This document shows positions 26,745 through 64,000 of a DNA stretch of 64,000 nucleotides, one piece after another. How positions within the stretch are numbered: the stretch's first letter is position 1; each line of letters begins with the position of its first letter. A program made the position numbers and the translations under genes. The notes below the pieces were generated by a model, which saw only the letters and a list, made by a program, of their open reading frames with translations, did no database searches and was not told the origin of the DNA. Source of the stretch: an uncultured Gemmiger sp. (GTDB lineage Bacteria > Bacillota > Clostridia > Oscillospirales > Ruminococcaceae); assembly GCA_944386495.1 (NCBI GenBank), contig CALXBE010000004.1, positions 62,001 to 126,000 of the forward strand, in the 5' to 3' direction.

Positions 26745-26773
26745 AGCATATCACATTGTCAAATTCTTGTCAA
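26745..26773 (-). promoter_or_regulatory. Sigma-A promoter for coaD and the butyrate operon
   Basis: On the minus strand TTGACA, 17 bp, TATGCT. The -10 box abuts the palindrome TTAATTAA and a TTGTTAA half-site (26735-26741). Confidence 0.75.
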
Positions 26774-26854
26774 TGAAAAGGATGTGAATTTTGGAACATT
26801 TGGAAAGATTGTCACTTTGACCAATTTCAGGGGAAAATTTAAATGTCTTTTCAC

Positions 26855-26883
26855 TTGACCCCGGGAATAAAAGAGGCTATATT
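26855..26883 (+). promoter_or_regulatory. Sigma-A promoter for the CoA-transferase gene
   Basis: TTGACC, 17 bp, TATATT, with transcription expected near 26890, inside the Rex-like palindrome. This and the preceding entries account for most of the 343-bp gap between coaD and the CoA-transferase. Confidence 0.7.
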
Positions 26884-26889
26884 TATAAT

Positions 26890-26907
26890 TAGTTAAGAAA
26901 TTAACAT
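26890..26907. promoter_or_regulatory. Rex-like operator at the CoA-transferase start site
   Basis: TAGTTAA-GAAA-TTAACAT is an 18-bp palindrome matching the Rex consensus at 12 of 14 positions, with the conserved GTTAA/TTAAC cores intact. It covers the expected +1 position of the promoter at 26855. Confidence 0.6.
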
Positions 26908-26973
26908 TATATAAAAGGCTATAACACAAGGCCCTCTCCCCCTTTTGGGCGGAAGGGTTCCAGGAGGTTTTTT

Positions 26974-40769: not shown

Positions 40770-40799
40770 ATTTATACACTCTCCTTTCAATGATTTATG

Positions 40800-40836
40800 G
40801 AAAAACGGGCGGGCCTTGCTGGTCCGCCCGTTATTT
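40800..40836 (-). terminator. Rho-independent terminator behind the giant surface-protein gene
   Basis: AACGGGCGG pairs with CCGCCCGTT; read on the minus strand the stem is followed by TTTTTCC, 13 bp after the giant gene. It splits the motor/surface unit from the MBL and signalling genes. Confidence 0.85.
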
Positions 40837-40846
40837 TTTCAGGACA

Positions 40847-43800
40847 TTATCTGTCCTTGTGTTTTTTACCTGTGTAACGGAAATAGAGAATGATCAGCGC
40901 TGCAAGGGCTGTCACAGAGATAACACCCAGCAGTACAAAACCGTTGCGCTCGCTTGCGGTCAGCTTCTGGCCGAAGTCTGCATCATTTACGGTGAAATCA
41001 TCTTCCGCCGGTTCCTGTTCAGGCTGTTCCGGCTGAGTTTCCTCAGGAACTTCCTGAGCGGGAGACTCTTCTTTCATGCCCAGCAGAGCAGTGGTTTCCA
41101 CTGTCTCATACCGGCCGGTCTCCTCCGAGTAGACGACCACCTGGCTGCCCAATGCGGTCAGAAGTGCCTGAAGGTCGCTTCCCTGCCCTGCGCCGGTGCC
41201 GTCTGCTGGGGTAGTACCCTGAGCGGAAGCGCCTGCGGGAGCCATGACTACCGCCTGGTTATCTCCCTGAGGCTGACCCACCTGGGCATAGGCCAGGACG
41301 CCATCCTTGTAGAGACCCTCGCCGGGCTGGTAGGTATAGGTTCCTTCCTCTGCTACCGGTGTTCCGTTGAGAGAGAGTCCCTGTCCGGGGATGTACTCGT
41401 ACCGTCCCTGGTCCAGGGCAGAATCGCCCTGGCCGGGCTGCTGTGCAGTACCGTCCGTCTGGTCTCCGGCGCCGTCAAGCTCATCTCCGGTGCCGTTGGG
41501 ATCATTTCCGGTGCCATCCGGCTCACCGGTTCCCAGAACCGTATCGCCTTCCAGCTGGTTTTCAGCATCTCCGCCCGTACCGTCGCCGCCCAGGTCCTCA
41601 GGTGCCTGAGCCTGGCCGCTGCCGGTTCCCAGGGAAGCCTCGCTCTCCAGGAAGCTGTCGCTCACATGGGTGCCGAAGGAATCCATAATTCCGTCCATAC
41701 TTACCTTTGCGTAGCTGAGCAGGGCGGTCATGGCAGGACGGGTATCGGTGATGATGTTCCCGTTGCTGTAATCCACTACCACCACATTGGCGCTGTTATC
41801 GTCACCGGCATAGCGGATGACGGCCACATTTCCGGAATATCCAAAGTTGTTGGATATCTGGACGATTCCCGTCATGGGCAGACCATTCAGCTTCATATTG
41901 TTCCGGTTATCCACCAGGACTCCGTCCTTCTGAAGGAGGGCGTAGTAGTTGGTGTAGCTGCCGGTAATGCTGGCCTTCCGGGAAAGGAGCATTCCGTCTG
42001 CCACTACATTCTGCCGGGGAGATACCACATAGGCGGTACCACCCAGGTCGAACAGCCGGACATCTGCCCGCTGAGAGCCAAACATGGTGTACTCATGGAA
42101 TACCCGTACAGCGGTAAGCTGGCTGTTGCCGGTGTAGGTATAGCTGTAAAGAGGTACGGCTTCCGGTTTGGTATCATTGACAGCGACTACGGTTCTGTCC
42201 GCAGCTGCCACGGAACCGGCAATATCCTTTTTCAGGGTATAGACTGCCCAGCTTCCGTCCCCTGCCTGGCAGAGGATCTTGCCCTGCCACAGGTGAACGG
42301 GGGTATCTGTTTCATCAATTCCCTGAAGGACACCCCGCTCGCCGGTGCTGGAGCCATGGATGACCTTGCCCTCTCCATCCAGATAATACCAGAGTCCATC
42401 GTAGGTCATAACATTCCGACGAAGGGCCTGCATGTCCTGAGAAGTAAAGGCGGTAGGCACTCCATCCACAGTTACGGTGACGGGGGTCTGGAAGTCGGTG
42501 GCGAAGGAAATGGAACCATTGGCATCGGTGGTATAAGTCCCCGCAGCACCATCTCCCAGCTGAACGGTAATGGTAGCTCCGCTTCCGTCCTGACTCTGGA
42601 AGTTTGTCAGATCCAGGGTAAAGGAATCTGCTCCGGTGGCGTAAAGGACTACCTGTGCAGGCTCGGCGCCGGGCTGAGGCAGAAGGATGCCCACTTCCTC
42701 GCCCTGGTAAGAATCGGTATCCGGCAGACGAGCCCCATCGCTGCCCAGCAGGAAGGGCATGTACCGGTTTCCTTCATTTTCCAGAGCTTTCAGGTCCCAT
42801 GCAGTGTCCGCAAAGCCCAGACCAGTGTAGAACTTGGGCTTTGCAAAGCTGTTGCCGGAAGCCAGGCCGCCCTTTTCAGGATAGAGGAAGGTATCGGTGG
42901 TAGTAGCCTCCTGACCTTCCTTGATGGCCTTTGCAGTCTGTCCGTTGAGGGTGGCTTCGTCCCAGATCATAACAGTGCCGTCACCCGCCGGGGCATAGGT
43001 GGACAGGGCGTTGGCCCAGAGAGAGGACCTGTCGCCTGCGGACCGTACCGAGCCGGTCATTACCACGCCGGAAAGATTTTCAGGAAGAATCTGATAATTC
43101 CGGTCATTGAGCTGACCGATGATACCGCCGGCATAGTTGCCCGCATATACCTCGCCGGAGAAGTAGACATTGGAGAACTTGGCATCCGTAGCATAATTCT
43201 CGTTTCTCTCCATCTTGCCCACAATGCCGCCTGCCACATTGCCGGTGGCATGGACCTGGGCACCGCAGGCCACATTGGACAGTTCAAACAGATATCCACG
43301 GCCCAGGATGCCGCCAGCATTTTCGCCGGTGCAGTTGACAACCACATCCTCGGCCACATAGACATTCTGGAAAACAACAGAACTTCCATTGATGTAGTTC
43401 ATTCCAATAAGACCGCCCACATTGTAGGGACCGGTAACCGTAGTATCCCGAACCGTCACATTCTTTACCGTACGACTGTCACGAGAGGGATTGATACCTG
43501 CTAACGCACCAGCAGAAAGATAGTATTCCTGGGCTGGAGGTGTGGTAGGCATAGCGGAAGGATTGGTAATGGTACAGCCTATAATCTGAATATTATCCAT
43601 ACTCCGGTTATCAAGTTGCCCTGACAGGCCTCCCACCATGTTGTAGCCTGTGACTTGTACATTTTCCACTAAAACATTATTCAGCTTATTGTAAGCGTAG
43701 CCCATGGACCCAAAAACGCCGCCAGTATATCTAGTTCCTACAGAAGTATTGGTGGAAGTGACAACTCCATCCCTTGCGGTTATATTTTCCTTATCTCCCA

Positions 43801-46800
43801 CATAAGCATATGAAGTCAGACCGCCTGCAGTGTAAACAGCTGTCACCTTGTAGTCTTCCACGGTAGCGCTGGTAAGGGAAGCTACTTGCTGAGCCAATCC
43901 ACCCACACCATCATAGCCAGTGACGGAAATGTGTTTCAGGGTAACACTACTGGAGCCAGGGGCAACAATGTAGGCCTGAGCACCAAACAAACTTCCTATA
44001 TTGCTTGCCAGTTGCGCATTGATTGTAATGTTTTCTCCGGTCACATTGTTGAAGGACCCGCGGATCTGCCCGGCCAGACCGCCCACATAGTTTCCTCCAT
44101 TTTCAGATGTGGGGATAGTAAGTTCCAGCTGATTCACGGTTATATCCAGGATATTCCCGTTGATCTGGCCAAAGAAGCCAAACCGTTTGTTCGTGTTGCG
44201 GTTTGCGAAAAGACGAATATCCTGGAAGTCACAGTCCGTAATATCATTCACCGAAACAATCACACCGGAAACGCCCCGTGCCGCCGCGACCGCAGAATAG
44301 TCTACCGAGAAGTTCTGGAAAGTAAGTCCGGAAATGTTTCCGTAGACATTTTCCATCCAGGGCGTACCCATGGTGGGGTTGGGGGTATAAATCAGGTTAT
44401 AGAATCCCGCTTCATCCCCTTGACCTTCCAGATTGCCGATTTTCAGACCAACTTCCTGCACATTCTGAGCATTGCCCAGGAAGTCGATTCTACCGGTAAT
44501 CCGGAAGTTTTCTCCTGTATCGGCGTGGCCGCCCCGCATGAGATTCCGCCAGGTGGTCAAATCCGGGACCTCCCAGTAGAGGGGCTGACCAAAGTCCACA
44601 GTACCGTTCAGGCTCCAGCTGCGCCCGTCTGCTGTCTGGTATGCCACTGTCAGAGTATAAACATCCAACCGCTTGGTAAAGATTTCCAAGTCTTCCTTGA
44701 TGAGGATACTGAAAGTGGTGGCTTCTTCGGATTCAGCAGATTTGTTGAAGGAAATCTGCACATTTTTAAGCTGCTGCTGAGACTCGGAAATATCGATTCC
44801 ATCAATGGTAATGCTGCCGGTAGCGGAAGCAGTCTGGAGCAGTGCAATGATTTCCTCGGATGTATATCCGGGGTGTTCCAATTCTCCGGAAAGCTGGAAG
44901 GGATAGTTCTGGCCCGGCAGATATCCTGCCTGGGTAATGCGAAGGGTCGGCGGTTCTGCCTGGCCGGGAAGTTCTATCCAAATCTGCCCCTCTACCAGAG
45001 TGCCGTCCTCCCGAAGGATGAGAGGCATGCCCGGCTGTTCCAGAGTGAGCTGGCTGTAGTCGAAGGAATCTCCCATTCCTGCCACATCCGCCCAGAAATT
45101 TTTGCTGGTCAGGTCCTGAGCATCTGCCAGCCCCCGGGCATCGGACACATCCTCCGCCGGCAGGTTATTCACCGTCTGACCTTCGTAGGCATAAACATTC
45201 AGGTACTGTCCAGACACAGAGGTACCATATGCCTCACCATTGACCCGGTTCACCTTTTCGCCGGTGGTCAGAATGTTGCCAAAGACAATGCCTCCTCGGT
45301 GGCGACCGGTGGTTCTGCCCACAAAGCCGCCCACCTGATCCCCGGTGGCGGTAATATCCACATCGGCCCATACATGGTCGGTATAGCCATAGGTTTCACT
45401 GTTGAAGCCGAAGATGCCGCCTGTCACGCCGCCGTTGGCCTGGATGGTCCCCTGGGCATAGCAGTTGGTTATCGGGACCCGGGCGTCATACCCCACCAGG
45501 CCGCCCACGCCCTCCACGACCGGAGAACTGATGACCTGAATGTCCACGTTCCGGGTGTAGCAGCGGTCCAGCTTATAGCTGTACATATATCCCACCAGAC
45601 CGCCTACCCGGGCAGGATGGGCGCCGGTGCCGTCATTGATGACCGCATCCGCCACAGAACATTCCTGGACGGAACCATATTCCACCTGGCCGGCCAGGCC
45701 GCCCACATAGCCGGTTCCGGAGACAGACACATCCCTAAGATGGACATTTACCAAGCTGCCACTGCCGAGATTTCTCACAAAGCCTGCCATAGAACTGGTC
45801 ACGGTACCGGCAGCCTTGATGGTAAGCCCCTGGACTGTCAGATTCCGGATCTCGCTGGTGCCACCAGACATGTTGTAAATCACCCAGGGCTGGGCCAGAT
45901 TTTCCAGAGAAATATTGCTGATGGTATGTCCATCCCCATCCAATTTTCCGGTAAAGCTACTGCCGCCGCTGGTCAGGCTGGTCTTTCTGCCGTCGAGTAT
46001 AAGGGCTGCGGGAGTAAGGGGATCGGCCTTGAAATCAATGTCCGATGTGAGCCGGTAGTTCCAGTTCATATGGTCATTGATGTTGGACCATTCGTTGGCG
46101 TTGCTTACGGTCTTCCAAAATTCAAAACCGGTGGTTTTATAGTTGGGGTAGGCCGTCACATTGGAAGAGCCTGCCGTATACTGCATTTCGGTGATGGTAT
46201 AGGTACTCAGGTACTGAGGATTTTCTCCATCTACCGCTGCATAGGCAATCACCTGGTACAAGCCGTCTCCCAAGGGATACTGATCTTGGATAGTAAACTT
46301 CAAGCCTGCCGCCGTAAAACCGGTAACGGTGGCATTCCGGGGGTTGTTCAGAATGAAGGAGACATTTCCCCCTTCATTGGAAATAAACTCACTGTCCCCG
46401 GAAGCCCAGCTGTCGCTGAGGATCTGAGGTTCGCTGTCTCCCAGAACCGGCAGAGGGATATAGTTCTGGTATTTCTGCATAACCGTGGACAGATTGAGCC
46501 GGGGATAGAATCCCACCTGAATGGTGCTGGTATCAAACCCTTCGCCCAGTATGCTCTGCTGCCATTCCTCGTCATAGAGGGTCGCCGGCTTGGAACTCTT
46601 TAACCAGCTGGTACGGGCTGCATAGCTGTTGAGGGAGATATAATAAACATCATGATTTTTTGCCGAGTTCGCGCTATGATAAAATACCCGTTCCTGGGCC
46701 ATAGGGCTGACGGTGCTCTTGTCGCTTACATACTGGTAGAAGTCTCCCACATGGTAGCTGTTGGAGTAATCGTAGTGAGAATAAACGGCAACTGCGCCGG

Positions 46801-49800
46801 CGGTACTCTCTGCACCGCCCAAGAACCAGGTATCATACAGGGTGAACACATTCCGGGTAACGCCTGTGGGGTAGTTCTCCCCCATGAATCCGCCGGCGTA
46901 ATTCTTCATAAGCATGACCCCGGCGCCGTTTTTCCCGTACATATAGCCATTTTCCACCAGACCGTTATTGTATCGGACACCGCCGCCTACAGCATTCTCC
47001 TGAATTGTAAGGTCGCCCCCCAGTTCAAGGATGAAATTCCGAAGGACACCGCCCCTTTCAACTGCATACGCCAGCAGGCTGCTACCATTTTGGTAGAGTG
47101 TAACCTTTCCCTGGGTGCGGACGATATAATTTTCTACAGTACCATAGATATTGCCTATAGGTCCATTTTTCACCGTGGTAGCGGCACCGAAATCATACAC
47201 CAGATTCCGCACCACCCCACCGCTCTGAACGGTATTGATAAGATAGTTATCTACACCAGACCGTGTAATTACATGCCCCTGGAAGTCAACGGTTCCCCAC
47301 AGATAGTCCACAGTTGTGCTTATGTAGTGGTCAAAGTCCTCCACCACCAGATAGTTGGCAAAGGGATTCTGTCTCACCTGCAGCAGGTCACGCTGATTCC
47401 GGATGACAAAGTAGGCCCCGTCGGTCTGGAAAGCGGTGCTGTCCAGGGTGACCTGACTTCCCTGATAGGTGGCTTTGAGTATCAGCTGGTAAGGCCGGTT
47501 GGCCGGCAGGCCCGAGATAACTTTGGCTGCATCCTCCGGATTCAGCTCATATTTGTTATCTCCATCTTCGTCCTGGAGAGGGAGTTTCCAGGTCTGGCTC
47601 AGCTCCCACTGGGTCGCAGAGAGGGTGTCGCCCATGTACAGTTCCAAGGTGACGGTGGGTTCCTGACCTTCCGGCAGGCCCACGGTCAGATAGCCATTAC
47701 TATCTGTCACTGTCAGCGTAGTGGAAACTGTGTAGCCGTCTTCCTGAACAGCATCTGCCACGAGGAACAGTTCATAGTTGTTACAAGTCTTCCAGTAGGC
47801 AAACCGGACATAACCTACCCCTTCAGGGATAGTCATGACCTGATTTTTCCGGTTTCGCACATATCCTATGTAACCGCCGGTGTCCGTATACAAGTACATG
47901 GAATACTCTGATTCCGAAGCATCACTGCTGGTCCAGAAACAGAGCTGGCCCGGTTCAACGGGAATCATGCTGGTCACTTTGTAGCTTGCATTGTCTATTA
48001 TTTTACCAGTATTTATATCAATATTTTTCCCTTCCTCGTAGGCCGTCCCCTGGAGCAAATCATTTTTGGCAGCTGTGTAACCGTATACCTCCAGCCCCCA
48101 CTGAAGGGCCCCTTCCTCTGTAACCGGAATCATCAGAGTAAAGGTGACCGCCCCATCCGGCACCGCAAAAATGGCGTCGCCACCAGTACCAAAGTAGGAG
48201 TCTTGGCTATGGCTGTTTTGAGTCACCAACTTTCCTTCACTATTATAGAATTTAGGAATGACATTGTAGAGTCCCGGGTTTGCATTGTACCAGGTAAAAT
48301 GGTCCTCTTCCAGCTGGAGGAAAGTGATGCCCTCCGGAATTTCAAATTTCTGGGTAGTGTATGTATCCTTGTAATAACCTTGCGGTATCCACTCGCCGCT
48401 TTCGATCTGGGCACGCACTTCCTCCCCGGTCATCTGAATCACCGGGTTCCGGGCCTGGCTGGTGGAAGCATACTCTATGCTCTCAATATTGATATCACCA
48501 TTCAGGCTGCTTCCGCCCTCTACAATATAGCTCCAAAGGAGATAGTTGGTCTCGTAGTTGGAGAAGCCCTCGGAGTCGTTATATGCCGCAGCCACAAACT
48601 TCAGCTCATACTCGGCCCCTTCGATGATGCCGTCAAAGGTGATGGTCTGGGTCTCACCGTTCTCCTTGGTGTCCGCATACATCTTCTCCATGTCCAGGAG
48701 GGTCCCGTTGTAATACAGGTAGACATAAACAAGTCCGTCTCCCTGAACCGTACCATCCGGGTCATAAATCCGGGCATCGATGAGGCTCAAAATATCGCCT
48801 GCTGCAAACAGGTCATTGTACTGCAGCTTGGGCCGAATCTTTTTTGTAGTGAACGCACTGGTAGAAAGGGTGGTAGGAATCTGATATTCCTCGCCGCTCT
48901 TGATAACCACAGACTGGATCTGCACATTATACCGTGTGGAAGTCTGCAATACCGCAGGTACATCCACCCTGATCCGGGCGGGAGTAGTGTACTGGATGTT
49001 TTCCGCATCCGGATTTACCACCTTGGGAGACAAAGCCTCCCAGGGAGTATAAGTTGCAAACAGGCTCTTGTCTGCCACCAGCATGATAGCCGGAGTCAGG
49101 GCATCCCCCTTCTGCAGGACCAATGCTCCCAGGGTATCGTCATAGTACCAGCTTCCGTCTGCCTCGCCCTCACTGGTGGGACGGTTCAGCTCCTCCATGG
49201 ACAGCGCACAGCTTACAGCCGGGGTTTTGCTGCCCTCCTTGGTGATATTGATACGATACTCGTCCACCAGCGGCAGAATATCCAGGGTGGTCTTGCTGGT
49301 CATGGTGGCATTCAGGGTCATGCTGGTATCCGCAAGATTGGCCACACTGGTGCTGAAATTCACCAGACCGGAAGACAAGGAGGCCGTATAAATACGGGCA
49401 TAACCCATCTGTACATCCCGCTGCACCGGCAGGGAGGGAGAAGTCACTCCATCCGGCTGGGAAGCGTACATACCGGTCACAATAAACTGATAAGTCCGGG
49501 CAAAGGCAAGGCTGTCAATGGTAAAGGTGTAACTCTTTCCATCCTCCGGCTCCGCCAGGGTGAGGGTCTTGCTCTGGCTGTCTCCAAAGGGAGTGCCATC
49601 CTCAAAGGTGCCCGTAAGGACCGCTGCCTGGCCGTTGGTGTCCTGAGCGGTCAGGGTGAGAGGCAGACTGACCCCGTCCTCCTGTGCCAGTGCTCCATCC
49701 GGATCGCTGACTTTCAGAGTAAGGGTGAGCTTATCGGTCACATTGGCGGTTTCAATAATTTCCACCTTGGGCAGGACCTTGGCTGTGTAAGCATCAAAAG

Positions 49801-51859: not shown

Positions 51860-51959
51860 GGAAACCTCCCGGAAACGCCCTAACCGGCTTTGAAATCAAT
51901 GTCCGTTTACTCGCCCAAAGGTGAAGAGAGCCATACGCCGCAGCGACAGCCCCGGACTG

Positions 51960-52799
51960 TTATTTCAGCCCGTCCAACAGATCGGGCCGTGTAAAGAGCA
52001 GCACTTTTGTGCCGTCCTGTAATGTCAGCGAATCCTCCAGCAGAGACACGGTATAATCCCCGGACACGGCCTTGGCCCTCACCGCCCCGGTGGGAGGCTC
52101 CATGGTCATGGTGCCGTCGGCCCGGTTATATACCATTACATCGTTCTGATAATCCGCAATAACATAAGACATGGCTCCCAGCTCCAGCTGGTAGCCGTTG
52201 AATTCCAGGGTCACCGGCTCCAGGAAGAGATAGGTGTCCTGTCCATCATACATAAAGCCTCGGGTAAGAGAGGTCTCTCTCCCTCCCGAAACGGCGGTAA
52301 CTGTGCCGTTATCCAGATAATCCAGCTCCGTGAAGCATTCCGCCCGCACGGCTGTGACGCTTCCGGATGCGTAGTAGACCATGGGCTGGGGAAGCACCAC
52401 CGTCTGCCGGTCCTCATAGTACACAGGCAGGCTGCTCATTTCCCCTTCCAGCTGGCTCCCCTTCATTTCGGTCACGCCTTCCGCATTTCTGCTCAGCCGG
52501 GTGCCGTCTGCCAGAGGAGTCTGCTGTCCGGCATAATATCGGTATGCCGTTCCGTTTATGGTGTAGCTGCCCGCCATCTGTGCAAACTGCACCATGAGCA
52601 GCGCAGCCAGTATCACTATATCCGCAGGAATAATGATCATGAGAATATTTCTGATCCTGCGTTTTTTCCGCCGTTCCAGAGCCTTGGCTCCACCGATTTT
52701 CTCTTTGAGCTGTGCATCTGTCTCCGGAGGTGCCTGGGGCACACGGCGGACGGGAGGCCGGCGGGTATCTCCCGTTTCCCGAATCTCTTTAGTCTTCAA
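51960..52799 (-). CDS. Membrane protein with extracytoplasmic domain, rotary-locus specific
   Basis: A 279-residue bitopic protein. About 50 basic, proline-containing cytoplasmic residues precede one helix (about 52-74). An exported domain of about 200 residues follows, rich in short beta strands (YLFLEPVTLEFNGYQLELG, then VMVYNRADG). A similar domain follows the N-terminal helix of the giant protein and of the 540-residue protein. I know no family for it. The cytoplasmic tail could contact the F1-like head or stalk; this is a guess from topology. TTG 52799 has AAGGAG upstream and overlaps the preceding gene by 11 bp. Confidence 0.75.
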   Translation of the reverse strand: MKTKEIRETGDTRRPPVRRVPQAPPETDAQLKEKIGGAKALERRKKRRIRNILMIIIPADIVILAALLMVQFAQMAGSYTINGTAYRYYAGQQTPLADGTRLSRNAEGVTEMKGSQLEGEMSSLPVYYEDRQTVVLPQPMVYYASGSVTAVRAECFTELDYLDNGTVTAVSGGRETSLTRGFMYDGQDTYLFLEPVTLEFNGYQLELGAMSYVIADYQNDVMVYNRADGTMTMEPPTGAVRAKAVSGDYTVSLLEDSLTLQDGTKVLLFTRPDLLDGLK

Positions 52800-53331
52800 T
52801 TAGGATTCTCCTTCCATTGGAAATCACATTCAGCTCGGTCAGGAACAGGTAGACCCCATACAGCGCCAAAAACAGGCTGATGAGGATATACACCACTACA
52901 AACCCTGCCCCGGGGTGAAAATCCCGGATATATCCGCAGACCACATTGGCTGCGCCCAATCCCACCAGTTCCATCAGGCAGCCCAGCAGGTTGGCCGGAA
53001 TTCCTTTCGGAGAGCGGATCTGGATGGAAAAAAGAAGGCTGGGAATCAGAATCACCAGGTAATGAATCCCTTCCAGCTTTTGGAAGGCAATCAAATAAGA
53101 CAAAAGCAGGCTCAGTTTGACCCAGGCCGAACCCAGCCGGACACAGTCATATTTCCCGAGCCCGTAAAACAGTCCCAGCCACCGGAAAGCCGGACGGTCA
53201 AACCAAAGGCCGCGGCTCAGCAAGAGCAGCGCGGCCAGCAGGGCGCAGGTAGACACCCCTACCGCCCCCAAAAAGGGCAGCAAGGGCTGTGCGGCATAAA
53301 ATATCCGCAGCGCTAATTCCTGAAATGTCAT
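52789..53331 (-). CDS. Five-helix membrane protein in the rotary ATPase locus
   Basis: A 180-residue very hydrophobic protein with helices at about 17-39, 66-85, 89-105, 113-134 and 142-164. It is not subunit a of F-type ATPases: the conserved arginine helix and its surrounding pattern are absent, and I find no relative among flagellar or secretion export proteins. It lies between the epsilon-like gene and the 279-residue membrane protein, with an 11-bp overlap to the latter. It could be the static membrane partner of the c-like ring, but nothing in the sequence proves it. Confidence 0.75.
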   Translation of the reverse strand: MTFQELALRIFYAAQPLLPFLGAVGVSTCALLAALLLLSRGLWFDRPAFRWLGLFYGLGKYDCVRLGSAWVKLSLLLSYLIAFQKLEGIHYLVILIPSLLFSIQIRSPKGIPANLLGCLMELVGLGAANVVCGYIRDFHPGAGFVVVYILISLFLALYGVYLFLTELNVISNGRRILIED

Positions 53332-53353
53332 CCTTCCTGCACCTCACTTACCT

Positions 53354-53692
53354 TCAATCCGTTTCGGTTTCATCATCCGCCGGCGGCATTTCCTTCTGGT
53401 CATCCTGCTCATGCTCGATCAAAAGGGTGAATTCGTTGTGCTGATGCTTGTAGAATCCTTTGATCCCGTCGTAGGCGATTTCTCCCTCGGTGGTGATGAT
53501 GACGATACTGCCGTCGATTCTGCCCAGCGTGGGAAGATAGTCTTCCATGATCAGCATACGGTTGTGCCGGTCGATTACCCGCACGCCTCTTACTCCGCTG
53601 ATCACCCGCAGGCCATTTTCTTCATCGATGACACGGGCATGAATCCTTCCCCGCTGCTGCTCAACGATGGACGGCTTTTTCTCTTTCGCCAT
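53354..53692 (-). CDS. F1-type ATPase epsilon-like subunit (beta-sandwich only)
   Basis: A 112-residue protein at the position of atpC. The segment from LIMEDYLPTLGRIDGSIVIITTEGE through YDGIKGFYKHQHNEFTLLIE follows the pattern of the epsilon N-terminal beta-sandwich, where GF-x-(5)-N-x-(2)-T-x-L is usual. The C-terminal two-helix domain that inhibits ATP hydrolysis in many epsilon subunits is missing; the end is a short acidic tail. The assignment rests on pattern, size and gene order, so it is moderate. It lies 13 bp behind the beta gene. Confidence 0.65.
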   Translation of the reverse strand: MAKEKKPSIVEQQRGRIHARVIDEENGLRVISGVRGVRVIDRHNRMLIMEDYLPTLGRIDGSIVIITTEGEIAYDGIKGFYKHQHNEFTLLIEHEQDDQKEMPPADDETETD

Positions 53693-53705
53693 TTCGGGTC
53701 CTCCC

Positions 53706-55961
<2,256 letters not shown>

Positions 55962-55965
<4 letters not shown>

Positions 55966-57290
55966 TCTCTCTCCCCCTGTTGGATCTGGCTGGCAGCCGC
56001 CAGCATCTGATCCGGTGTACGGCCGGCAAACTTGGGCTGGCAGAGCATCTGCAGGATCTTTGCGCCCCTGCGCATGGTTCTGCGCAGATTCTCGCCCATC
56101 TCGTCTGCATTGGCCAGCTCAAAGACCTCCCGCTGTTCCAGGTAGGCCAGCAGCTCCCGCCGCAGAGGCGGGCCGGCTTTCTTCATGGCCGGGCTCTGAA
56201 CTGCGCCGCCCAGACGGGAAACGGACAGGCCGTAGTTGATGGCAGGCTTTTGCCCTTTTTCAAAGTTTTTGGCAGACAGTACGATCTGTCCGTCGGTGAT
56301 GGAGATGATGTTGGTGGAAATATAGTCGGTAATGTCCCCGCCCTTGGTTTCACAGATAGGCAGGATGGTAATGGAACCGCCGTTCTTATGCTGGCAGCCC
56401 AGCTCCAGCATACGGGAATGGCTGTAGAAGATATCCGGGGGATAAGCATCACGGCCGGGAGTCTTTCCCATAAGAAGGGCAAGTTCACGGCAGACATCTG
56501 CGTGGCGCTTCAGGTCATCGATGGCCACCAGCACATCATACCGCTGTTCAAGGTAGTACCGGGCAATGGAAAGGGCCGCATAGGGAGTATTCCGGAGCAC
56601 AGGAGCCGGGTCGTCATTAAAGGCGGCCACGATCACGGTGTAAACCATGGCGCCCCGGGCCAGCAGCTGGCTGTAAATATCCTTGATCTCCTTCTTGGTC
56701 TTGCCCACCGCCACATAGATGCAGAGGACATTGGCCCCTGCCTGGTTGCAGATGGTGTCCAATGTGATCTGGGTTTTTCCGGTTTTCTTATCGCCGATGA
56801 TCAGCTGGCGCTGGCCCCGGCCGATGGGATACATCAGGTCAATGCCGGTGATTCCGGTGAGAAGAGGCCGGTTGACGGTGGTCCGGTCCATAATGGGGAT
56901 GGGAGCGGTCTCCAAAGGCAGTTCCTTCAACTCATCCATCCGCTTGCCTACCAGCCGGTCCATGCCGGACAGGTCAATGACATGGCCCAGGGAGTTGGGG
57001 GAATACTGGACAGTATATTCCCGTCCGGTAGCCACCACCTGGTCTCCAATATGTACCTTCCCGGTGACCCGGGTCAGCGCCACCAGAACACAGTCCTGAC
57101 GGATGGCATCAATGTAACCTTCGGCCTTGTCTCCCACGGTCACCCGCTCAAAATATGCGGCGCCTTCCAACCCGGTTACTTCCAGGATATATTCCCGCAC
57201 AAGCCGTACATGGCCGGTGGCAAAGGCATTGGCGCCCTTTTTGATATCTGCAATTTTCTGCTCCAGGACAGTATCAATGGTGCTGTTCAT
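55962..57290 (-). CDS. Divergent F1-type ATPase alpha subunit (atpA-like)
   Basis: A 442-residue non-catalytic nucleotide-binding subunit, about 60 residues shorter than housekeeping AtpA (about 500). It has Walker A GDKKTGKT (166-173; usual form GDRQTGKT), AIDDLKRHA, and the arginine finger in SVSRLGGAVQ (R359). The N-terminal helix that anchors the delta subunit is shortened, and the C-terminal helical domain is trimmed. ATG follows directly on the stop of the stalk gene (TAAATG) with GGGAG upstream. The intact arginine finger means the alpha-beta interface should be catalytically competent. Confidence 0.92.
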
Positions 57291-58079
57291 TTAACTGATC
57301 TCCCTTGTTTTGATACAATAGTCGAATACGCAATTATCGGCCTCCAGCAAAAAGCCCTCACAGATGGCCGGATCTTCCACCACCTGTACCTGGGGGGGAA
57401 TCCCCTGACACCGGGTCATGGGGGCCACCCGCAGCAGGGGCGGATGAGGCTCCCGGTCTGCTTTTTCTCTCAGGAAGTCATAGAACCCCAGGCTTTTGAA
57501 GCCGCCGCTGCACTGGCTGTGATATTCCTGAACCAGGTTCCGCTGTTCAGGGGACAAAGACTCCATAAGCAGCCGGTACTGGTCCTTCCCGGGCAGGGTG
57601 GACAGGGTAAACACCGTTTCAAAAGAAAGTTCTTTCAGCAAGCGGGAGGCAGGCCCCGGCTTGCATTCCAAAGCCTCCCGGGGTATCCGGGCAAGGGCTT
57701 CCTGGGGAGAAAAGGCAAATCCCGTGCGGATCTTCTGGTAAAGGCGGGCTGCCCCATCGTCCCGGTACCGGGCAGAGGAGATTTTCTCCACGGCTCCCAG
57801 CAGGGCGGTGCGGGCTGCCGCCTCCCCGGCAGGAGCCTTGGGCTGGAAGGGCTGTTTTTTCTCTACCCGGGGCTGTTCCTGGGCCGAATTCTTTTTGCTC
57901 TCGATCCAGGCCAGTTCCCGGCTCCGCTCCTCCAGGATGTCATCGTAAGCAGAAACCAGCTCCAGGGTCCTGGAACGGATGCTTCTGCCCACCGTTTTTG
58001 CCAGCCAGGCCACAGCCAAAGCCGCAAGTCCCACCAGCAGCCCCACTACCAGGGCTACTGCTATGTAAGCGTAGATCAT
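57291..58079 (-). CDS. Peripheral-stalk-like protein (b/delta-like fusion)
   Basis: A 262-residue protein at the place of atpF and atpH. An N-terminal helix (5-27) is followed by a basic, helical stretch with coiled-coil character (28-65), a Pro/Ala linker and a globular part. Its last 25 residues (EGFLLEADNCVFDYCIKTRE) match the pattern with which delta and V-type E subunits end. This suggests one protein acts as both b and delta, as known for fused stalk subunits elsewhere. The middle does not resemble the delta helical bundle, so the assignment is by position, topology and C-terminus. It lies 15 bp behind the c-like gene. Confidence 0.65.
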   Translation of the reverse strand: MIYAYIAVALVVGLLVGLAALAVAWLAKTVGRSIRSRTLELVSAYDDILEERSRELAWIESKKNSAQEQPRVEKKQPFQPKAPAGEAAARTALLGAVEKISSARYRDDGAARLYQKIRTGFAFSPQEALARIPREALECKPGPASRLLKELSFETVFTLSTLPGKDQYRLLMESLSPEQRNLVQEYHSQCSGGFKSLGFYDFLREKADREPHPPLLRVAPMTRCQGIPPQVQVVEDPAICEGFLLEADNCVFDYCIKTREIS

Positions 58080-58094
58080 AGTCTCCGCCCCTAC

Positions 58095-58388
<294 letters not shown>

Positions 58389-58428
58389 TTACGGAACGCT
58401 CCCTTTCAAGGGGCGTATTTTCTGCCCG

Positions 58429-60051
58429 TTAGGGCTGCGTGGTGTAGAAGTTGTTGATGCAGCGTGCCGTCATCATTTCGGCATCATTTACATCCAGCAG
58501 CTTAACCTCCAGCACCTGGGTAGCCTTGAAGGCCGCCAGCTGATCTTCCTTGATGGGCAGTTCCACCAGCACGCCGCCGGAAGAAGCCTTTTTCAGGTCA
58601 TCAGCAGTCAGCTCCCGGGTAATGACCTGTGGACTGCCGCCGGCGCCGTTCAGGGTCATTTCCAGCCGGGAAGGCTCACCCTCCAGAGAATCCATCAGCA
58701 GGGTGACTCCAACGGCTCCGGTATTTACATAGTCAATGGCCAGCCGGTTCTGAAGCTGAGGAGTGACCAGACGGTAATAATCGTCCAGGGTCCTTTCCAT
58801 ACTGCCCATCTCGTCTTCCGCCACATGGGCCAAAACCACATAGTATTCCGTAGCCGGAGTGATTCCGTTGTTGAAAACATAACTGGAATCGTAGGTGCTG
58901 ACAGAAGTGCGGAAAGCCGCGTTGAAGTTGGCCCAGTAATTATCCACTGCATCGGCCTTGTCCGTATCACTGTCATACAGGTCCTGAACGGTGATGCCCA
59001 GATTTTTCAGATCGCTGGCCTTGTGCAGTTCCAGATAAACCATACCCAGGGTGCCGAAGGGATCCACAAAGTAGTAGTCCACCTTGATAATGTTGCTGCT
59101 CAGGGCCTGGGCACTCTTCAGGGTGACGATCTGGACTACCTCCTGATCCTCACCAACACCGCCATCGCCGCCTGCGCCGCCGGAACCACCGGTACCGCCA
59201 GTGCCGCCTGCGCCGCCAACACCGCCGGTGCCGCCTGCACCGCCAGTGCCGCCCACGCCGCCTGTTCCACCGGTGCCGCCAGTGCCGCCGGTACCGCCGG
59301 TACCGCCGTCACCGCCATCACCGCCCCGGATGGTCAGGTCGATGGAGTCGGGAGTCTGCTCTTCCTCAATGGTTTTGTAGATTCCGGAATCGTAAGTATT
59401 GGTGCTGCCGATCACCCGTGCCATATCAATGGTCTGTCCGGTGACTGTAAGCAGCTCGTTGGCAATATCAAAGGTAAGGTCTCCCGCCACCAGGGTGGTG
59501 GGCTGAGTGGTTTTAAGGCTCAGGTTGCTGGAGTACATCCGTGCGTTGCCTACCATATCCATAACAATGTAAAGGTAGTTTTCCGCAGTGAAAGTTCCTT
59601 CTGTGTCGGTAATCTCGTCATAGGTGATGAGATACCGGCGGTCAGCCAGCTTGTAAAGGCTGGGAGTATCCCCTGCCAGTTCCTCTCCATCGGTGACGCT
59701 GGTCACCTGTCCATTCACATCCACCTGGTAGCCGCCGCCGAAGATGACGGCACCGCCGCCGGTGTATGCCATGGTATGGGCTCCCAGAGGAAGGCTGACG
59801 CCCCCTTCCACCCCCAGGGTGTACTGTCCGTCAGCGCCAAGGCGAACCACTCCGCCGTCCGTCAGTTCCACGGGAGTGAAGGTGTTGTCATAGAGAACCG
59901 CACCGGCAGGCAGGGTCACCCCTGCCGCCTGGTGGGTTACGGTTGTTCGGGCCGATACAGCCATGGCGCCGAACATAATCAGCAGCAATGCGGCAAAAAC
60001 GGCAAAGCAGACCTTTGTACCCGTATTGAATTTCCGTGTAGGGTTCATCAT
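58429..60051 (-). CDS. Anchored surface protein with polyglycine (GGX) tract
   Basis: A 540-residue exported protein. A basic N-terminus and a hydrophobic segment (14-33) ending in VSA form a signal peptide or anchor. The first extracytoplasmic domain (about 40-235) resembles, in strand pattern, the domain after the helix of the giant and 279-residue proteins. Residues 243-300 are an almost pure GGX repeat. The C-terminal half (about 305-540) looks like two Fn3-type beta domains. No C-terminal anchor. It is directly upstream of the c-like gene (91 bp) and 17 bp behind the large partial gene. GGAGG precedes the ATG. Confidence 0.8.
   Translation of the reverse strand: MMNPTRKFNTGTKVCFAVFAALLLIMFGAMAVSARTTVTHQAAGVTLPAGAVLYDNTFTPVELTDGGVVRLGADGQYTLGVEGGVSLPLGAHTMAYTGGGAVIFGGGYQVDVNGQVTSVTDGEELAGDTPSLYKLADRRYLITYDEITDTEGTFTAENYLYIVMDMVGNARMYSSNLSLKTTQPTTLVAGDLTFDIANELLTVTGQTIDMARVIGSTNTYDSGIYKTIEEEQTPDSIDLTIRGGDGGDGGTGGTGGTGGTGGTGGVGGTGGAGGTGGVGGAGGTGGTGGSGGAGGDGGVGEDQEVVQIVTLKSAQALSSNIIKVDYYFVDPFGTLGMVYLELHKASDLKNLGITVQDLYDSDTDKADAVDNYWANFNAAFRTSVSTYDSSYVFNNGITPATEYYVVLAHVAEDEMGSMERTLDDYYRLVTPQLQNRLAIDYVNTGAVGVTLLMDSLEGEPSRLEMTLNGAGGSPQVITRELTADDLKKASSGGVLVELPIKEDQLAAFKATQVLEVKLLDVNDAEMMTARCINNFYTTQP
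59152..59325 (-). repeat. In-frame 9-bp minisatellite coding a GGX tract
   Basis: About 19 consecutive Gly-Gly-X triplets (X mostly Thr, Val, Ala, Ser, Asp) come from 9-bp units. Such tracts can form polyglycine-II helices, stiff rods known from some phage fibres. The unit can expand or contract by slippage without shifting the frame. Confidence 0.9.
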
Positions 60052-60068
60052 CTAACCTCCGTTCTTTT

Positions 60069-63000
60069 TTAGCCGCGGTATGTGAGACTCAGAGTCTTGT
60101 AAGGTGCAGAAGCATCCTCACTTCTGTAAAGCTGGACGGTAATAAGGTAGTTACCGCTTGTGACCTGTGCGGGGATATCGTAAGTGTATACCTCGTATCC
60201 CTGTGCGTCGGTCGTCCGGGTAAAGATCTTATCGCCTGCGGAAACCCTGGACTCACCGGACAGGAAGGTAGGCACATTCAAGCCGGTAACCGACCACTTG
60301 ACCAGGGGGAAGCTCTGGCGTGCCTGATCGTTTTCGTCAATGGTGACTACGCCGTAGCTTTCGGCCAGGTTGAGCTGAAGGGTGTTGGTTCCCACACGCA
60401 GGATGGAAGCCATCTTCTCATTGATGAGGATACCCTCGGAGTCGGTGGTCTGCTGGGTCTTGAGGCCCACCTCATACCGTTTCTTGATCCACTTCATGGA
60501 ATCAAGCTCGGTATAGGAACCGCCCTGATCGTCCCAAATTCGGTTGATCATCTTCTGGAAATTGTCCTCGTCTCCGAAGAACCATTCATAGCTCTGAAGC
60601 TGATCCTCAGACCCTGCTTCGTCGGTTTCCACCAGACCATCATGGTCAAAGTCGGGCACCGCAAACACATGCATGGTGTACTCGGTGGCCTGGTCGATCT
60701 TCTGTCCTTCCAGGTTGCTTGCCGTGAGGCAATCCGCCGAGAGGACAAAGGATTTCTGAAGATCTGCACCGGAATACAGCTCTTCATCGTAGGTGGTAAG
60801 GAGACGGTATTCCTTTTCCCCGTTCTTTGCGGTAAACCGCACGGCATACAGGGCTCCTTCATCGGTCTCTGTGGAGCCTTCCTTCCGTCCCATGTAAGAG
60901 AACTGGGCATCGCTGAGGGTCACCTGGAAGGTAAGAGCGTCAGAGGTTGCATTCTGTGCATAGATGAGTGCGCCGGTATTGCCCACCGGAGAAATGGTGA
61001 ACTTGAAGGTGTTTTCACCCACAATGTCTTCCCCGCCCTGCTCGGTTACATAGATCCGCAGGTAGTAAGTACCGCCGGGAACCAGCTTGTTGCGGAGCTG
61101 AGAGGGTTCCAGGTTGAGGGTGAGTTCACAGTTGGAAGTGGTCAGGTTCTTGGGAGCTGTCAGGATGGAATCCAGTTCTGCTCCGCTGTAAATGGGAGTC
61201 TGGCTCTCATAGTTGCCTTCGCTGGCATAGATGGCATAATGTGCCTCAAATCCCAGGAAGGGGGTAATGGTGTAATTCATTTTGAAGAACTTTTCAAAAT
61301 AGGAATTATTGTAATACACCATTTCCTGCGCAGACTCGATGACTACATCGTCTACCGCGGTAAAGCGGTAGATTGCCCGCTGTGCGGACTGCGCATCCAT
61401 CAGAACAGTGGGCTGGCCATCAATCATCATGCAAACGGCCAGCCAGTAGGTCTTGCCGGCTTCCAGGCCTTCCAGAACAAGGTTTGTGCTCTGGTCCACC
61501 GGCTTGGCGGTTCCCTTTTCATCGATGGCGACCCTTACCTGTCCGGAGGTGATGGGATTTTTCAGTCCCTGTGCATCCTCCTGGCTGGCGAATACACCCA
61601 TGTACACAAGGCGGATATTCTCTGCCTCACCCTCTGCGGGGTCTGCATTGGCAGCGCCGTCAATGGTAAAGTTGGGGGAGACCTCCAGCTTTGTGGTGGT
61701 TGCCCGGTAGTTGCCCATGGCGATGGCGGGAGTGATGGAGGTAAGCTGGAACTGTCCATCGCCTGCGGAAGGAACCGACAGGACCGCGCAGCCCTTGGGC
61801 ACTGCATACCGTCCGGTAAGGAGATCCACACTGGAATCGGTGGAAATATCCATACCGTAATGGTCAATGTAGAAGTAGCGTCCTACCGCAGCGTTTGTTG
61901 CGCTGGTAAGGTATCGGGTAACACCGTAAGTCTTGGCAGGCTTATTCAGGTCATTCAGGCCGTTGTACAGCCGCTTCAGGCTCAGATGATTGTTGCCGCC
62001 GTCGTGGACTGCAACAGCGCCGCTGGGAGATGCACCGGTACCGCCAGTTACGGAACTGAGGTAACTCTCAAATCCGAAGGTATTGCTTTCCTCACCGGTA
62101 CCGTTGATTATCTGGAGGGCAAACATGGCATCATCTTCGTCTATCAGCGCCCAGCCCAGTTCTCCGTTATCGTACAGGAGCTCTGCAGTGTACCGGATGG
62201 TCTTGCCCACCAGATTGGCGATCCGTCCGGTAGCCAGTTCTGCATAGGGCCGTCCATCCACACCGACACCTACGGGCAGATAAATGGGATCGGTAGTGAC
62301 CGTTTCCCTTCCATCCTGATAGGAGAAGGTCAGCTTCATGGCGTAAAGCCGCTCCGCAATGGTCGCTGCTGCTGCACCGCCGCCCACCGTATCCTTTACC
62401 CGGAAGGTGATGATGTTTCCTGCCATGTTGCTCAGGTCTGCTTCCACCTGGATCTGGCTGCCGTAATTTGCGAACCGGTCATCCCAGGCCCAGTCCACAG
62501 GCACCTGGCACAGATAGAAGGTATCGGTGTCCTGGTCCTCCCAGGCAGTTCCCTCGGTCAGATCCTTCATAATCTCGGTATAGTCAATGCCATACCGGCT
62601 GATTTCCAGCTGAGGAGTTATCATGCCGGTAGCAGGCTGGTTGCCCACGGCAGCGATCCGGTAGGGGATGTCCACCTGCCACCAGCCATCACCCACCTCT
62701 TCCATTCCGGTGTCTGTATCATATGTGGCCTTGGTGTCGTTGATTGCGCAGGACTGGGTAATTCCATCCGCATCCACCCAGGTGACCTTGGTCTTTTCCT
62801 CGAAGGTTCCCGTATCGTTGATGGTTCCATCCACATCCCGGTATTTGTACTGGATGGTAATTGTACCGGATGTGGCCAGGCCCATGCTATCCTCGCTGGA
62901 CTTTGTCTCGTAAACCATGGTATGGATCTCGGGGTCCATACGAGGTGCCTCATACATACCGGAGTTCAGCACATAGGCGCTGTTCTGGCCAATGACCTTG

Positions 63001-64000
63001 CCGAACTGCTGACCGGCGCCGTAAGCCGCCTTGTAAGCAGTGTAATCCGCATGCCCGTAGGGATAGACCGACAGCTGGCTCTCGTCAAAGTTGCCGGTGG
63101 TAGAATACCGGACCGTATAGGCAAAAGTATACCGGTATCCGCGGCCCATACCGCTGAGAGCACCGCTGGTGAGCTGATCTTCTCCGGTATAGTACACATA
63201 GCAGTTATTGATGAACTGAGCATCCTTATCCTCGGTCTTGGTTCCTCCAAAGAGGAAGGCTACCGAAGGCACCGCATCCGATGCGGCAGAAATGCGCTGG
63301 GTCGCCTCGATCAGATGGTTTGCATTCTGGATGGGGTCCTTGCCGCCCAGGAGGGCATTATAGAACTCGCTGTATTCCAGGGCATAGTAGGTCACATCGT
63401 AGCCCAGCCGCTGCACATTATCGTAGGTGGATTCCAGCCGATAGCCAATGAGCAGTTCATCAGGCTGGGTCTCATCATACTTGGCTCCGTATTTGGGCGC
63501 ATCCTCATTATAAATGGGAGTCACCTTCACACCCTGGGCAGGGTTGGAAAGCAAGTCCGGCGGAGTTGCCTGTGCAGTAATGGGCAGGTTTGCGTTGGCC
63601 ACCGAGTCAAAGACATTCTGGTATCCCAGAGCCATGCTGTAGGTGGCGTCGGTGACAGTGGTAACCACCAGGGTGTAGTCCACGCTGGGGCTGAGGGTCA
63701 GGCTGCCGCCGAAAGTGTTTTCTGTTATGTCAATACCGGCGGAGCCGTACAGCTGTTCCAGCTGGGTGGTGCTGGTAATATCGGTGTAGGCAATACGCAC
63801 CTTGTTCACGCCGGTGCCATTGTAGAGTTCCAGCCGGACAGAACCGGACCGCAGTTCGTTGAGAGCATAAGCCTCACGCTCTTTGTCCTCGGTGGTATTG
63901 GCTGCGGACAGTTTCAGATTCCGGGAAATGGCGGTACCGGTGCTTTCGCTGGGGGTGCTCCAGGTAGCTGCCAGGTTGATGGGGGCATAGGTGCGGAACC
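60069..64000 (-). CDS. Very large secreted multidomain protein (partial, N-terminus off window)
   Basis: The frame is open to the right edge, giving at least 1,309 residues; the N-terminus is missing. The visible part is a series of beta-sandwich, Fn3-like units of about 100-130 residues with recurring TEYTMHVFA, KTYWLAVCM and GTYYLRIYVTE-type strands. The end (ITVQLYRSEDASAPYKTLSLTYRG) has no helix or sorting motif. Composition and domain type match the giant protein at 40847. It is followed 17 bp later by the 540-residue protein, so it belongs to the rotary ATPase unit and the promoter lies outside the window. Confidence 0.8.
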   Translation of the reverse strand, partial: FRTYAPINLAATWSTPSESTGTAISRNLKLSAANTTEDKEREAYALNELRSGSVRLELYNGTGVNKVRIAYTDITSTTQLEQLYGSAGIDITENTFGGSLTLSPSVDYTLVVTTVTDATYSMALGYQNVFDSVANANLPITAQATPPDLLSNPAQGVKVTPIYNEDAPKYGAKYDETQPDELLIGYRLESTYDNVQRLGYDVTYYALEYSEFYNALLGGKDPIQNANHLIEATQRISAASDAVPSVAFLFGGTKTEDKDAQFINNCYVYYTGEDQLTSGALSGMGRGYRYTFAYTVRYSTTGNFDESQLSVYPYGHADYTAYKAAYGAGQQFGKVIGQNSAYVLNSGMYEAPRMDPEIHTMVYETKSSEDSMGLATSGTITIQYKYRDVDGTINDTGTFEEKTKVTWVDADGITQSCAINDTKATYDTDTGMEEVGDGWWQVDIPYRIAAVGNQPATGMITPQLEISRYGIDYTEIMKDLTEGTAWEDQDTDTFYLCQVPVDWAWDDRFANYGSQIQVEADLSNMAGNIITFRVKDTVGGGAAAATIAERLYAMKLTFSYQDGRETVTTDPIYLPVGVGVDGRPYAELATGRIANLVGKTIRYTAELLYDNGELGWALIDEDDAMFALQIINGTGEESNTFGFESYLSSVTGGTGASPSGAVAVHDGGNNHLSLKRLYNGLNDLNKPAKTYGVTRYLTSATNAAVGRYFYIDHYGMDISTDSSVDLLTGRYAVPKGCAVLSVPSAGDGQFQLTSITPAIAMGNYRATTTKLEVSPNFTIDGAANADPAEGEAENIRLVYMGVFASQEDAQGLKNPITSGQVRVAIDEKGTAKPVDQSTNLVLEGLEAGKTYWLAVCMMIDGQPTVLMDAQSAQRAIYRFTAVDDVVIESAQEMVYYNNSYFEKFFKMNYTITPFLGFEAHYAIYASEGNYESQTPIYSGAELDSILTAPKNLTTSNCELTLNLEPSQLRNKLVPGGTYYLRIYVTEQGGEDIVGENTFKFTISPVGNTGALIYAQNATSDALTFQVTLSDAQFSYMGRKEGSTETDEGALYAVRFTAKNGEKEYRLLTTYDEELYSGADLQKSFVLSADCLTASNLEGQKIDQATEYTMHVFAVPDFDHDGLVETDEAGSEDQLQSYEWFFGDEDNFQKMINRIWDDQGGSYTELDSMKWIKKRYEVGLKTQQTTDSEGILINEKMASILRVGTNTLQLNLAESYGVVTIDENDQARQSFPLVKWSVTGLNVPTFLSGESRVSAGDKIFTRTTDAQGYEVYTYDIPAQVTSGNYLITVQLYRSEDASAPYKTLSLTYRG

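What the first reader, a model, noticed from the sequence alone, without database searches (positions are those of the whole stretch)
40847..64000. F1-type rotary ATPase embedded in a giant surface-protein operon: candidate new machine
Seen: c-like, stalk-like, alpha, gamma, beta and epsilon-like genes in canonical F-ATPase order lie in one minus-strand run between huge exported proteins (at least 1,309, 540 and 3,670 residues) with gaps of 0-100 bp and several ATGA overlaps. Known: housekeeping atp operons carry subunit a and no surface proteins; mollicutes have F1-like-X0 clusters linked to surface proteins. Inference: ATP hydrolysis drives rotation or conformational change of a surface structure, for adhesion, motility, wall-spanning export or glycan handling.
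Basis: partly seen in the sequence, partly recalled or inferred. Interest (0 to 1): 0.93.

Follow-up and report, generated by a model that had tools for sequence, protein, structure and literature searches.

The report
Ion-dead rotary ATPase for surface proteins
Some Clostridia and related bacteria carry a conserved set of about eleven genes that joins ATP-synthase-like motor parts, whose membrane-ring subunit lacks the acidic residue that normally carries ions, to giant proteins predicted to sit on the cell surface, so the machine likely burns ATP to move the cell surface instead of pumping ions.

Summary
An 11-gene minus-strand operon encodes a 2,131-aa predicted surface protein (running past the window), a 540-aa one, c, a stalk protein, alpha, gamma, beta, an epsilon-position protein, a 5-TM protein, a single-pass protein and a 3,670-aa giant. 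The same order recurs in 15 loci of four other families. The c-subunit lacks the ion-binding carboxylate in 136 of 136 rows examined (133 distinct), against Glu in 24 of 24 ordinary c. No subunit a lies in the operon; 0 of 13 relatives from one order have one anywhere, and 12 of these 13 have no other alpha/beta pair. The host genome has two other F-type operons with subunit a. Alpha and beta keep catalytic motifs and form clades apart from ordinary ones. Best reading: an ATP-driven rotary motor with mechanical output to giant surface proteins, analogous to, but not a member of, the Mycoplasma gliding and MIB-MIP ATPases. Assembly, rotation and coupling are inferred; epsilon homology was not supported.

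The parts
60069..64000 (-). Giant predicted surface protein 1 (2,131 aa in full; continues past the window to L007:6464 = C4:128464): N-terminal hydrophobic anchor, membrane-proximal domain, Gly-rich/collagen-like linker, weak fn3 match
   Evidence: found in 14 of 14 loci where the contig reaches it
58429..60051 (-). 540-aa N-terminally anchored predicted surface protein with Gly-rich linker; membrane-proximal domain similar to that of surface protein 1
   Evidence: 15 of 15 loci; domain similarity over 69 columns, E 2.8e-4, 0 of 60 shuffles as good
58095..58337 (-). c-subunit (80 aa): keeps a GxGxGxG helix and the GRNPET polar loop, lacks the ion-binding carboxylate in TM2
   Evidence: PF00137; 136 of 136 family rows (133 distinct) lack the acid, 24 of 24 ordinary c have Glu
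57291..58079 (-). b-delta-like stalk protein (262 aa): N-terminal TM and charged helix, C-terminal delta-like part
   Evidence: delta profile E 3.6e-5, 0 of 100 shuffles; no sequence match to b; position between c and alpha
55962..57290 (-). alpha subunit (442 aa), Walker A GDKKTGKT and arginine motif SRLGGA
55186..55965 (-). gamma subunit (259 aa)
   Evidence: PF00231, 94 bits
53706..55118 (-). beta subunit (470 aa), Walker A GGAGVGKT, GERSREG, DELS
53354..53692 (-). Epsilon-position protein (112 aa; 87-129 aa in relatives); homology to epsilon not shown
   Evidence: negative profile test
52789..53331 (-). 5-TM protein (180 aa), candidate membrane stator in place of subunit a; no Arg/Lys among the positions near-invariant in the wide alignment
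   Evidence: AlphaFold2 model of five helices, mean pLDDT 78.7
51960..52799 (-). 279-aa single-pass protein with a predicted outside all-beta domain
40847..51859 (-). Giant predicted surface protein 2 (3,670 aa), hydrophobic segment at both ends; 30-31% identical to four relatives over 2,717-2,921 aligned residues

Best explanation
A conserved operon of about eleven genes encodes an F1-type ATPase with a c-subunit that lacks the ion-binding carboxylate, a delta-like stalk protein and giant predicted surface proteins, and its products are predicted to form an ATP-driven rotary motor that would move those surface proteins instead of pumping ions. Proposed working (inferred): alpha3beta3 hydrolyses ATP and turns gamma; gamma, perhaps with the epsilon-position protein, turns a c-ring that still has the polar loop that grips the central stalk but cannot bind ions by the usual residue; the stalk protein holds alpha3beta3 to a membrane stator, most likely the 5-TM protein where subunit a would sit; the relative motion of ring and stator is passed to the membrane-anchored single-pass and giant proteins outside, which crank, extend or reset, as proposed for the surface machinery of Mycoplasma F1-like ATPases. 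Shown: operon, conservation, loss of the carboxylate, absence of subunit a, intact catalytic motifs. Inferred: assembly, rotation, coupling to the surface, biological use.
For: Same gene order in 15 loci outside the window's genus. Profiles built without G1249 and G1343 found 11 of 11 components in G1343 and 10 of 11 in G1249, whose c was seen (both genomes were found through c). Carboxylate absent in 136 of 136 rows (133 distinct: the 120 listed of 1,499 search hits, the window, 15 loci), present in 24 of 24 ordinary c. No PF00119 in 13 of 13 relatives of one order; 12 of them have only this alpha/beta pair. Catalytic motifs in 13 of 13 aligned rows of alpha and of beta. 14 alpha and 14 beta of the system each form one clade apart from five ordinary ones, also those of the same genomes (99.5/100 and 99.3/97). 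Giants conserved at full length like the membrane parts (G1249-G1343: 63-67% for the three surface proteins, 52-63% for stalk, 5-TM and 279-aa). Delta match. Precedents: PMC12994834 (introduction, section 2.1, first part of discussion read), PMC11864180 (discussion and passages read).
Confidence: 0.62

Rival explanations
1. The ATPase powers export, wall passage or assembly of the giant surface proteins rather than moving them once in place.
For: Giants are encoded in the same operon on both sides of the motor; their N-terminal hydrophobic segments allow ordinary Sec export as a first step.
Against: Alpha and beta are F1-like with gamma and c, not FliI/SctN-like (best 178 and 214 bits, cut-offs 379.5 and up); keeping c and a stalk argues for a rotary output; giant 2 has a hydrophobic segment at both ends, unlike a freed substrate.
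Confidence: 0.15
2. The motor resets a ligand-handling surface complex (capture, cleave, release), as proposed for MIB-MIP and the Type 3 ATPase, rather than driving movement or force.
For: Closest functional precedent (PMC12994834); weak fn3, collagen and GLUG matches in the giants fit binding roles.
Against: Pfam/NCBIfam recognised no protease in the operon proteins scanned. MIB/MIP homologues were not searched for.
Confidence: 0.15
3. It is still an ion pump: the 5-TM protein is a diverged subunit a and ions use another site on c.
For: The top-ranked Foldseek chain for the 5-TM model is from an ATP synthase Fo entry; the protein lies in the same operon.
Against: No acid at the ion site in 136 of 136 rows and none in the TM1 core; one TM2 acid in one sequence. 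No near-invariant Arg/Lys in the wide 5-TM alignment. Foldseek E 2.7 is not significant.
Confidence: 0.06
4. A decayed, non-working ATP synthase operon that hitch-hikes beside surface genes.
For: Loss of the carboxylate and of subunit a.
Against: Catalytic motifs and gene order are kept in lineages whose alpha differ by about 40%; c is 60-68% identical across orders while lacking the acid throughout, which looks like purifying selection, not decay.
Confidence: 0.02

Closest known systems
Mycoplasma Type 3 F1-like X0 ATPase (MIB-MIP associated)
   Same: Extra F1-like alpha, beta, gamma in a cluster linked to surface proteins; no subunit a; mycoplasmas keep a separate ATP synthase
   Different: Seven genes with a 12-TM protein, a two-TM protein and a small cytosolic protein, described as not homologous to Fo subunits (PMC3369863 section 19; PMC12994834); here a c-subunit and a delta-like stalk are kept, with a 5-TM protein and up to three giant or large surface proteins; alpha and beta score below the MSC_0619/MSC_0618 cut-offs
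Mycoplasma mobile Type 2 G1-ATPase (gliding twin motor)
   Same: Proposed mechanical output to large surface proteins; GliD is thought to derive from a b-delta fusion (PMC11864180, discussion), as the stalk protein here appears to be
   Different: beta has a large N-terminal extension and the motor is dimeric; no c-subunit in the cluster; alpha and beta here are below the MMOB1660/MMOB1670 cut-offs; the stalk profile did not find GliD in the PDB
Bacterial F1Fo ATP synthase
   Same: alpha, beta, gamma, c, delta-like part; order c-(stalk)-alpha-gamma-beta; beta near NCBIfam's atpD cut-off
   Different: No subunit a; c lacks the ion-binding residue; surface-type giants in the operon; separate clade
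N-ATPase
   Same: A further F-type operon beside the housekeeping one, patchily spread
   Different: N-ATPase order is beta-epsilon-I-R-a-c-b-alpha-gamma, with a and without delta (PMC4154653, passages); alpha 333-362 bits against a cut-off of 750.5

Membership tests
F1Fo ATP synthase | Subunit a (PF00119) for the ion path | tested here: not met
   Absent from the operon; 0 of 13 relatives of one order have it anywhere; in G000, G110, G1249, G1343 it lies only on other contigs
F1Fo ATP synthase | Carboxylate in TM2 of c | tested here: not met
   0 of 136 family rows (133 distinct); 24 of 24 ordinary c have it
F1Fo ATP synthase | Catalytic alpha/beta motifs and gamma | tested here: met
F1Fo ATP synthase | NCBIfam equivalog scores atpA / atpD | tested here: inconclusive
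   alpha below the atpA cut-off 484 in 3 of 3 full-length proteins (362, 406, 407); beta above the atpD cut-off 463 in 2 of 3 (468, 476, 440)
F1Fo ATP synthase | Peripheral stalk b and delta | tested here: inconclusive
   delta part supported though not by Pfam in the window protein or in the PDB search; b part only by TM, position and charge
F1Fo ATP synthase | Epsilon subunit | tested here: inconclusive
   A 112-aa gene in the right place; no profile similarity to five ordinary epsilons
Mycoplasma Type 2 / Type 3 F1-like X0 | alpha/beta above the NCBIfam cut-offs (MMOB1660/1670, MSC_0619/0618) | tested here: not met
   window alpha 367 (cut-off 600) and 289 (520); beta 365 (850) and 393 (570); G1041 and G937 likewise below
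Mycoplasma Type 2 / Type 3 F1-like X0 | 12-TM X0 protein in the cluster | tested here: not met
   The polytopic protein of the operon has 4-5 hydrophobic segments
Mycoplasma Type 3 | Neighbouring MIB and MIP genes | not tested
   No MIB/MIP search was made; Pfam/NCBIfam scans of the giants did not suggest them
N-ATPase | alpha/beta above alt_F1F0 cut-offs; subunit a; no delta | tested here: not met
   alpha 333 (750.5), beta 420 (752); no a; delta-like part present
Type III secretion / flagellar export ATPase | FliI/SctN family score | tested here: not met
   alpha 178, beta 214 bits at best, cut-offs 379.5 and up; gamma and c present

The most novel reading that the evidence does not exclude
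A new class of rotary ATPase: a membrane rotor made from an ATP-synthase c-ring that has permanently given up ions and works as a mechanical gearwheel, spinning or cranking giant fibres on the outside of walled bacteria, and in some small-genome Clostridia the only rotary ATPase the cell has.
Probability: 0.5. Interest if true: 0.97.

Novelty: new variant of a known kind. Interest (0 to 1): 0.91.

Why it matters
Rotary ATPases are textbook ion machines. To my knowledge the described F1 motors with mechanical output are those of wall-less mycoplasmas, whose membrane part has no recognised Fo homologue. Here the Fo rotor subunit is kept and its ion site is gone, so the usual output is very unlikely. 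It shows a possible route from ATP synthase to surface motor, makes the question of how F1 torque crosses a membrane directly testable, and points to an unrecognised surface machine in Clostridia, including one named species (Chakrabartyella piscis) that has at least the c-subunit and the 5-TM protein.
Full report
What is in the window. A minus-strand run of eleven genes spans 40847 to beyond 64000; the first gene starts at L007:6464, that is C4:128464. In reading order: a 2,131-aa predicted surface protein, a 540-aa one, c (80 aa), a stalk protein (262 aa), alpha (442 aa), gamma (259 aa), beta (470 aa), a 112-aa protein in the place of epsilon, a 180-aa polytopic protein, a 279-aa single-pass protein and a 3,670-aa protein with hydrophobic segments at both ends. 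Pfam names c, alpha, beta and gamma over their cut-offs and none of the other seven. Nearby stand a metallo-hydrolase, a GAF protein, a FecR protein, two CHASE2 cyclases and a GGDEF/EAL protein; none of these was the best label of an ORF printed for the 13 relatives.

The genome has other F-type ATPases. PF00006 gives six matches in G000. C5 holds a complete ordinary operon: a, c with Glu, b, delta, alpha, gamma, beta, epsilon. C20 holds a second F-type operon with a, b, a delta-alpha ORF of 679 aa, gamma, beta and epsilon; I did not identify its c. So the operon in the window is a third F-type set. The genome is 81% complete.

The c-subunit lacks the usual ion site. A protein search with the window's c gave 1,499 matches, of which the best 120 were listed. 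I aligned these 120, the window and 15 loci from other genomes with the host's own ordinary c: 136 rows, 133 distinct, one of the 120 being the window's own protein. At the position of the ordinary Glu66 all 136 have A, V, T, S, M or I, while 24 of 24 ordinary c taken from 27 loci of the class sample have Glu. No member has an acid in the core of the first helix; one (P0113) has a Glu elsewhere in the second helix. The GxGxGxG helix and the GRNPET loop, which in ordinary c pack the ring and grip gamma/epsilon (recalled), are kept. The 120 were ranked by likeness to the window's c, so they are not a random sample of the 1,499.

Distribution. A profile of the c family separates cleanly: in 391 genomes of the class only G000, G392 and G461 score above 120 bits, the others at most 44.1. 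In the order of G392 it is in 13 of 191 genomes; in a phylum sample in 3 of 398 (G000, G1249, G1343). In the window's family a gamma search found only G000 and G110 at high score among 148 genomes; five others match at 25 bits or less. In its genus the stalk protein is in 2 of 3 genomes, and in its order only G000 has a full-length stalk match among 394 (G872 has a partial 28-bit match). A stalk scan of the named genome collection gave one locus, L017, which I take for the G110 record. So the system is rare and patchy. Chakrabartyella piscis, a named Clostridia species, has a c (P0106) and a 5-TM protein (P0027) of the families; its gene order could not be seen.

The operon is one unit. In the 13 loci and the two the order is the same. 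Counts over these 15 loci: s540-like in 15 of 15; s2131-like in 14 of 14 where the contig reaches it; stalk in 14 of 14 (the G1014 contig ends inside it); alpha, gamma, beta, epsilon-position, 5-TM and 279-aa in 15 of 15, those of G1014 lying on a second contig, with alpha in two pieces. G988 gamma is in two pieces and its 5-TM ORF is short. Stalk and 5-TM genes diverge fast: in the first 12 loci the stalk was assigned by position alone in 5 and the 5-TM in 9. Matches to the second giant follow in 10 of 15: near full length, in one or two ORFs, in G937, G969, G1064, G1065, G1249 and G1343, 855 aa in G1005, and only the part before the contig end in G1014, G1041 and G1061. It is absent in G967, not seen in the 2.2 kb left in G392 and G461, and the contigs of G958 and G988 end too soon. 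Profiles built without G1249 and G1343 found all 11 components in G1343 and 10 in G1249, whose c overlaps a long stalk call but is there. G392 and G461 are near copies, so 14 loci are distinct.

In one order it is nearly always the only rotary ATPase. PF00119 gives 0 of 13 genomes, and PF00006 shows only this alpha/beta pair in 12 of 13, plus in 10 of 13 a match of 85-103 bits that I take for Rho and one sub-threshold match in G392; G1061 has a further pair, V/A-like in length (597 and 444 aa). Twelve of these 13 genomes are at least 90% complete. G1249 and G1343 do have a subunit a on other contigs and further PF00006 matches.

Sequence state. GERSREG, DELS and Walker A of beta and SRLGGA of alpha are the same in 13 of 13 aligned rows; Walker A of alpha keeps its consensus, with R for K at a free position in two. 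Trees with five ordinary alpha and five ordinary beta from G000 (C5, C20), G110, G1249 and G1343 put the 14 alpha of this system in one clade (99.5/100) and the 14 beta in one clade (99.3/97). So it looks like an old side branch, not a recent duplication. Between the window and four other lineages alpha is 55-61% identical, beta 60-66%, the two giants 27-31% over 1,719-2,921 aligned residues (s2131 with three lineages only), and c 60-65% with three lineages; between G1249 and G1343 the three surface proteins are 63-67% identical, like the 5-TM (63%) and the 279-aa protein (59%). The giants therefore change at the pace of the membrane parts of the motor, as fixed components would.

Membrane and outer parts. 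The stalk protein's C-terminal part matches delta (107 columns, E 3.6e-5, 0 of 100 shuffles); two of 13 members also touch PF00213 weakly, but the profile found no delta in the PDB. The 5-TM protein is predicted as five helices (mean pLDDT 78.7); the structural search is not significant. The 279-aa protein is predicted as one long helix and an all-beta domain (mean pLDDT 79.9) without a convincing PDB match. The 540- and 2,131-aa proteins share a stretch of a membrane-proximal domain, often followed by a Gly- or Asn-rich linker.

Mechanism. Shown: intact catalytic motifs, a rotor subunit without its ion site, a delta-like stalk part, no subunit a, giants in the same unit. Inferred: the complex hydrolyses ATP, gamma turns the c-ring, the stalk and the 5-TM protein hold the stator, and the motion goes to the single-pass and giant proteins outside. 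The nearest precedents are the Mycoplasma Type 2 gliding ATPase and the Type 3 ATPase needed for MIB-MIP (PMC11864180: discussion and passages read; PMC12994834: introduction, section 2.1 and first part of the discussion read; PMC3369863: section 19 and passages read). Those authors describe a membrane sector not homologous to Fo, and a GliD thought to come from b and delta. The present system would work in a similar way, but is not a member: its alpha and beta fall below those families' cut-offs and come no closer to them than the host's ordinary subunits do, it has no 12-TM protein, and it keeps c.

Novelty. Seven searches of the paper library listed no description of a c family without the carboxylate or of this operon; only listings were seen, two of the searches had many more matches than rows, and most subscription journals are not held. 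I rate it a new variant of a known kind (F1 motors with surface output) that may prove to be a class of its own.

Noticed in passing
G000:C20:6362-8401 (L009): In the second F-type operon of the host genome delta and alpha read as one 679-aa ORF; G110 has an open frame of the same length there (681 aa), so it may be a real fusion.
   Followed up: partly
window 33900-35780 and L007:8883-10775: Two CHASE2-adenylate/guanylate cyclase genes flank the operon on both sides, with a GGDEF/EAL protein just upstream of the first giant; a possible local nucleotide-signalling set, not seen beside the operon in the 13 relatives.
   Followed up: partly
window 58396-58416: A 7-pair stem-loop in the 91-base gap between the 540-aa gene and c, where a step up in c expression would be useful; listed as terminator-like on the plus strand only.
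   Followed up: no
L007:642-6548 and window 40790-43504, 43886-46603, 48203-51214 (+): Very long antisense open frames (up to 1,968 aa) opposite the giant surface genes; most likely a by-product of codon use and composition.
   Followed up: no
window 19911-28323: A butyrate-type gene run (Etf alpha/beta, acyl-CoA dehydrogenase, 3-hydroxybutyryl-CoA dehydrogenase, enoyl-CoA hydratase, thiolase, CoA transferase), judged by eye from the ORFs.
   Followed up: no
G1061:C29:15080-29706, G967:C11:21212-30842, G1014:C8:13587-20000: Further large ORFs (about 810-2,240 aa) upstream of the operon in several relatives, without a match to the window's proteins.
   Followed up: no
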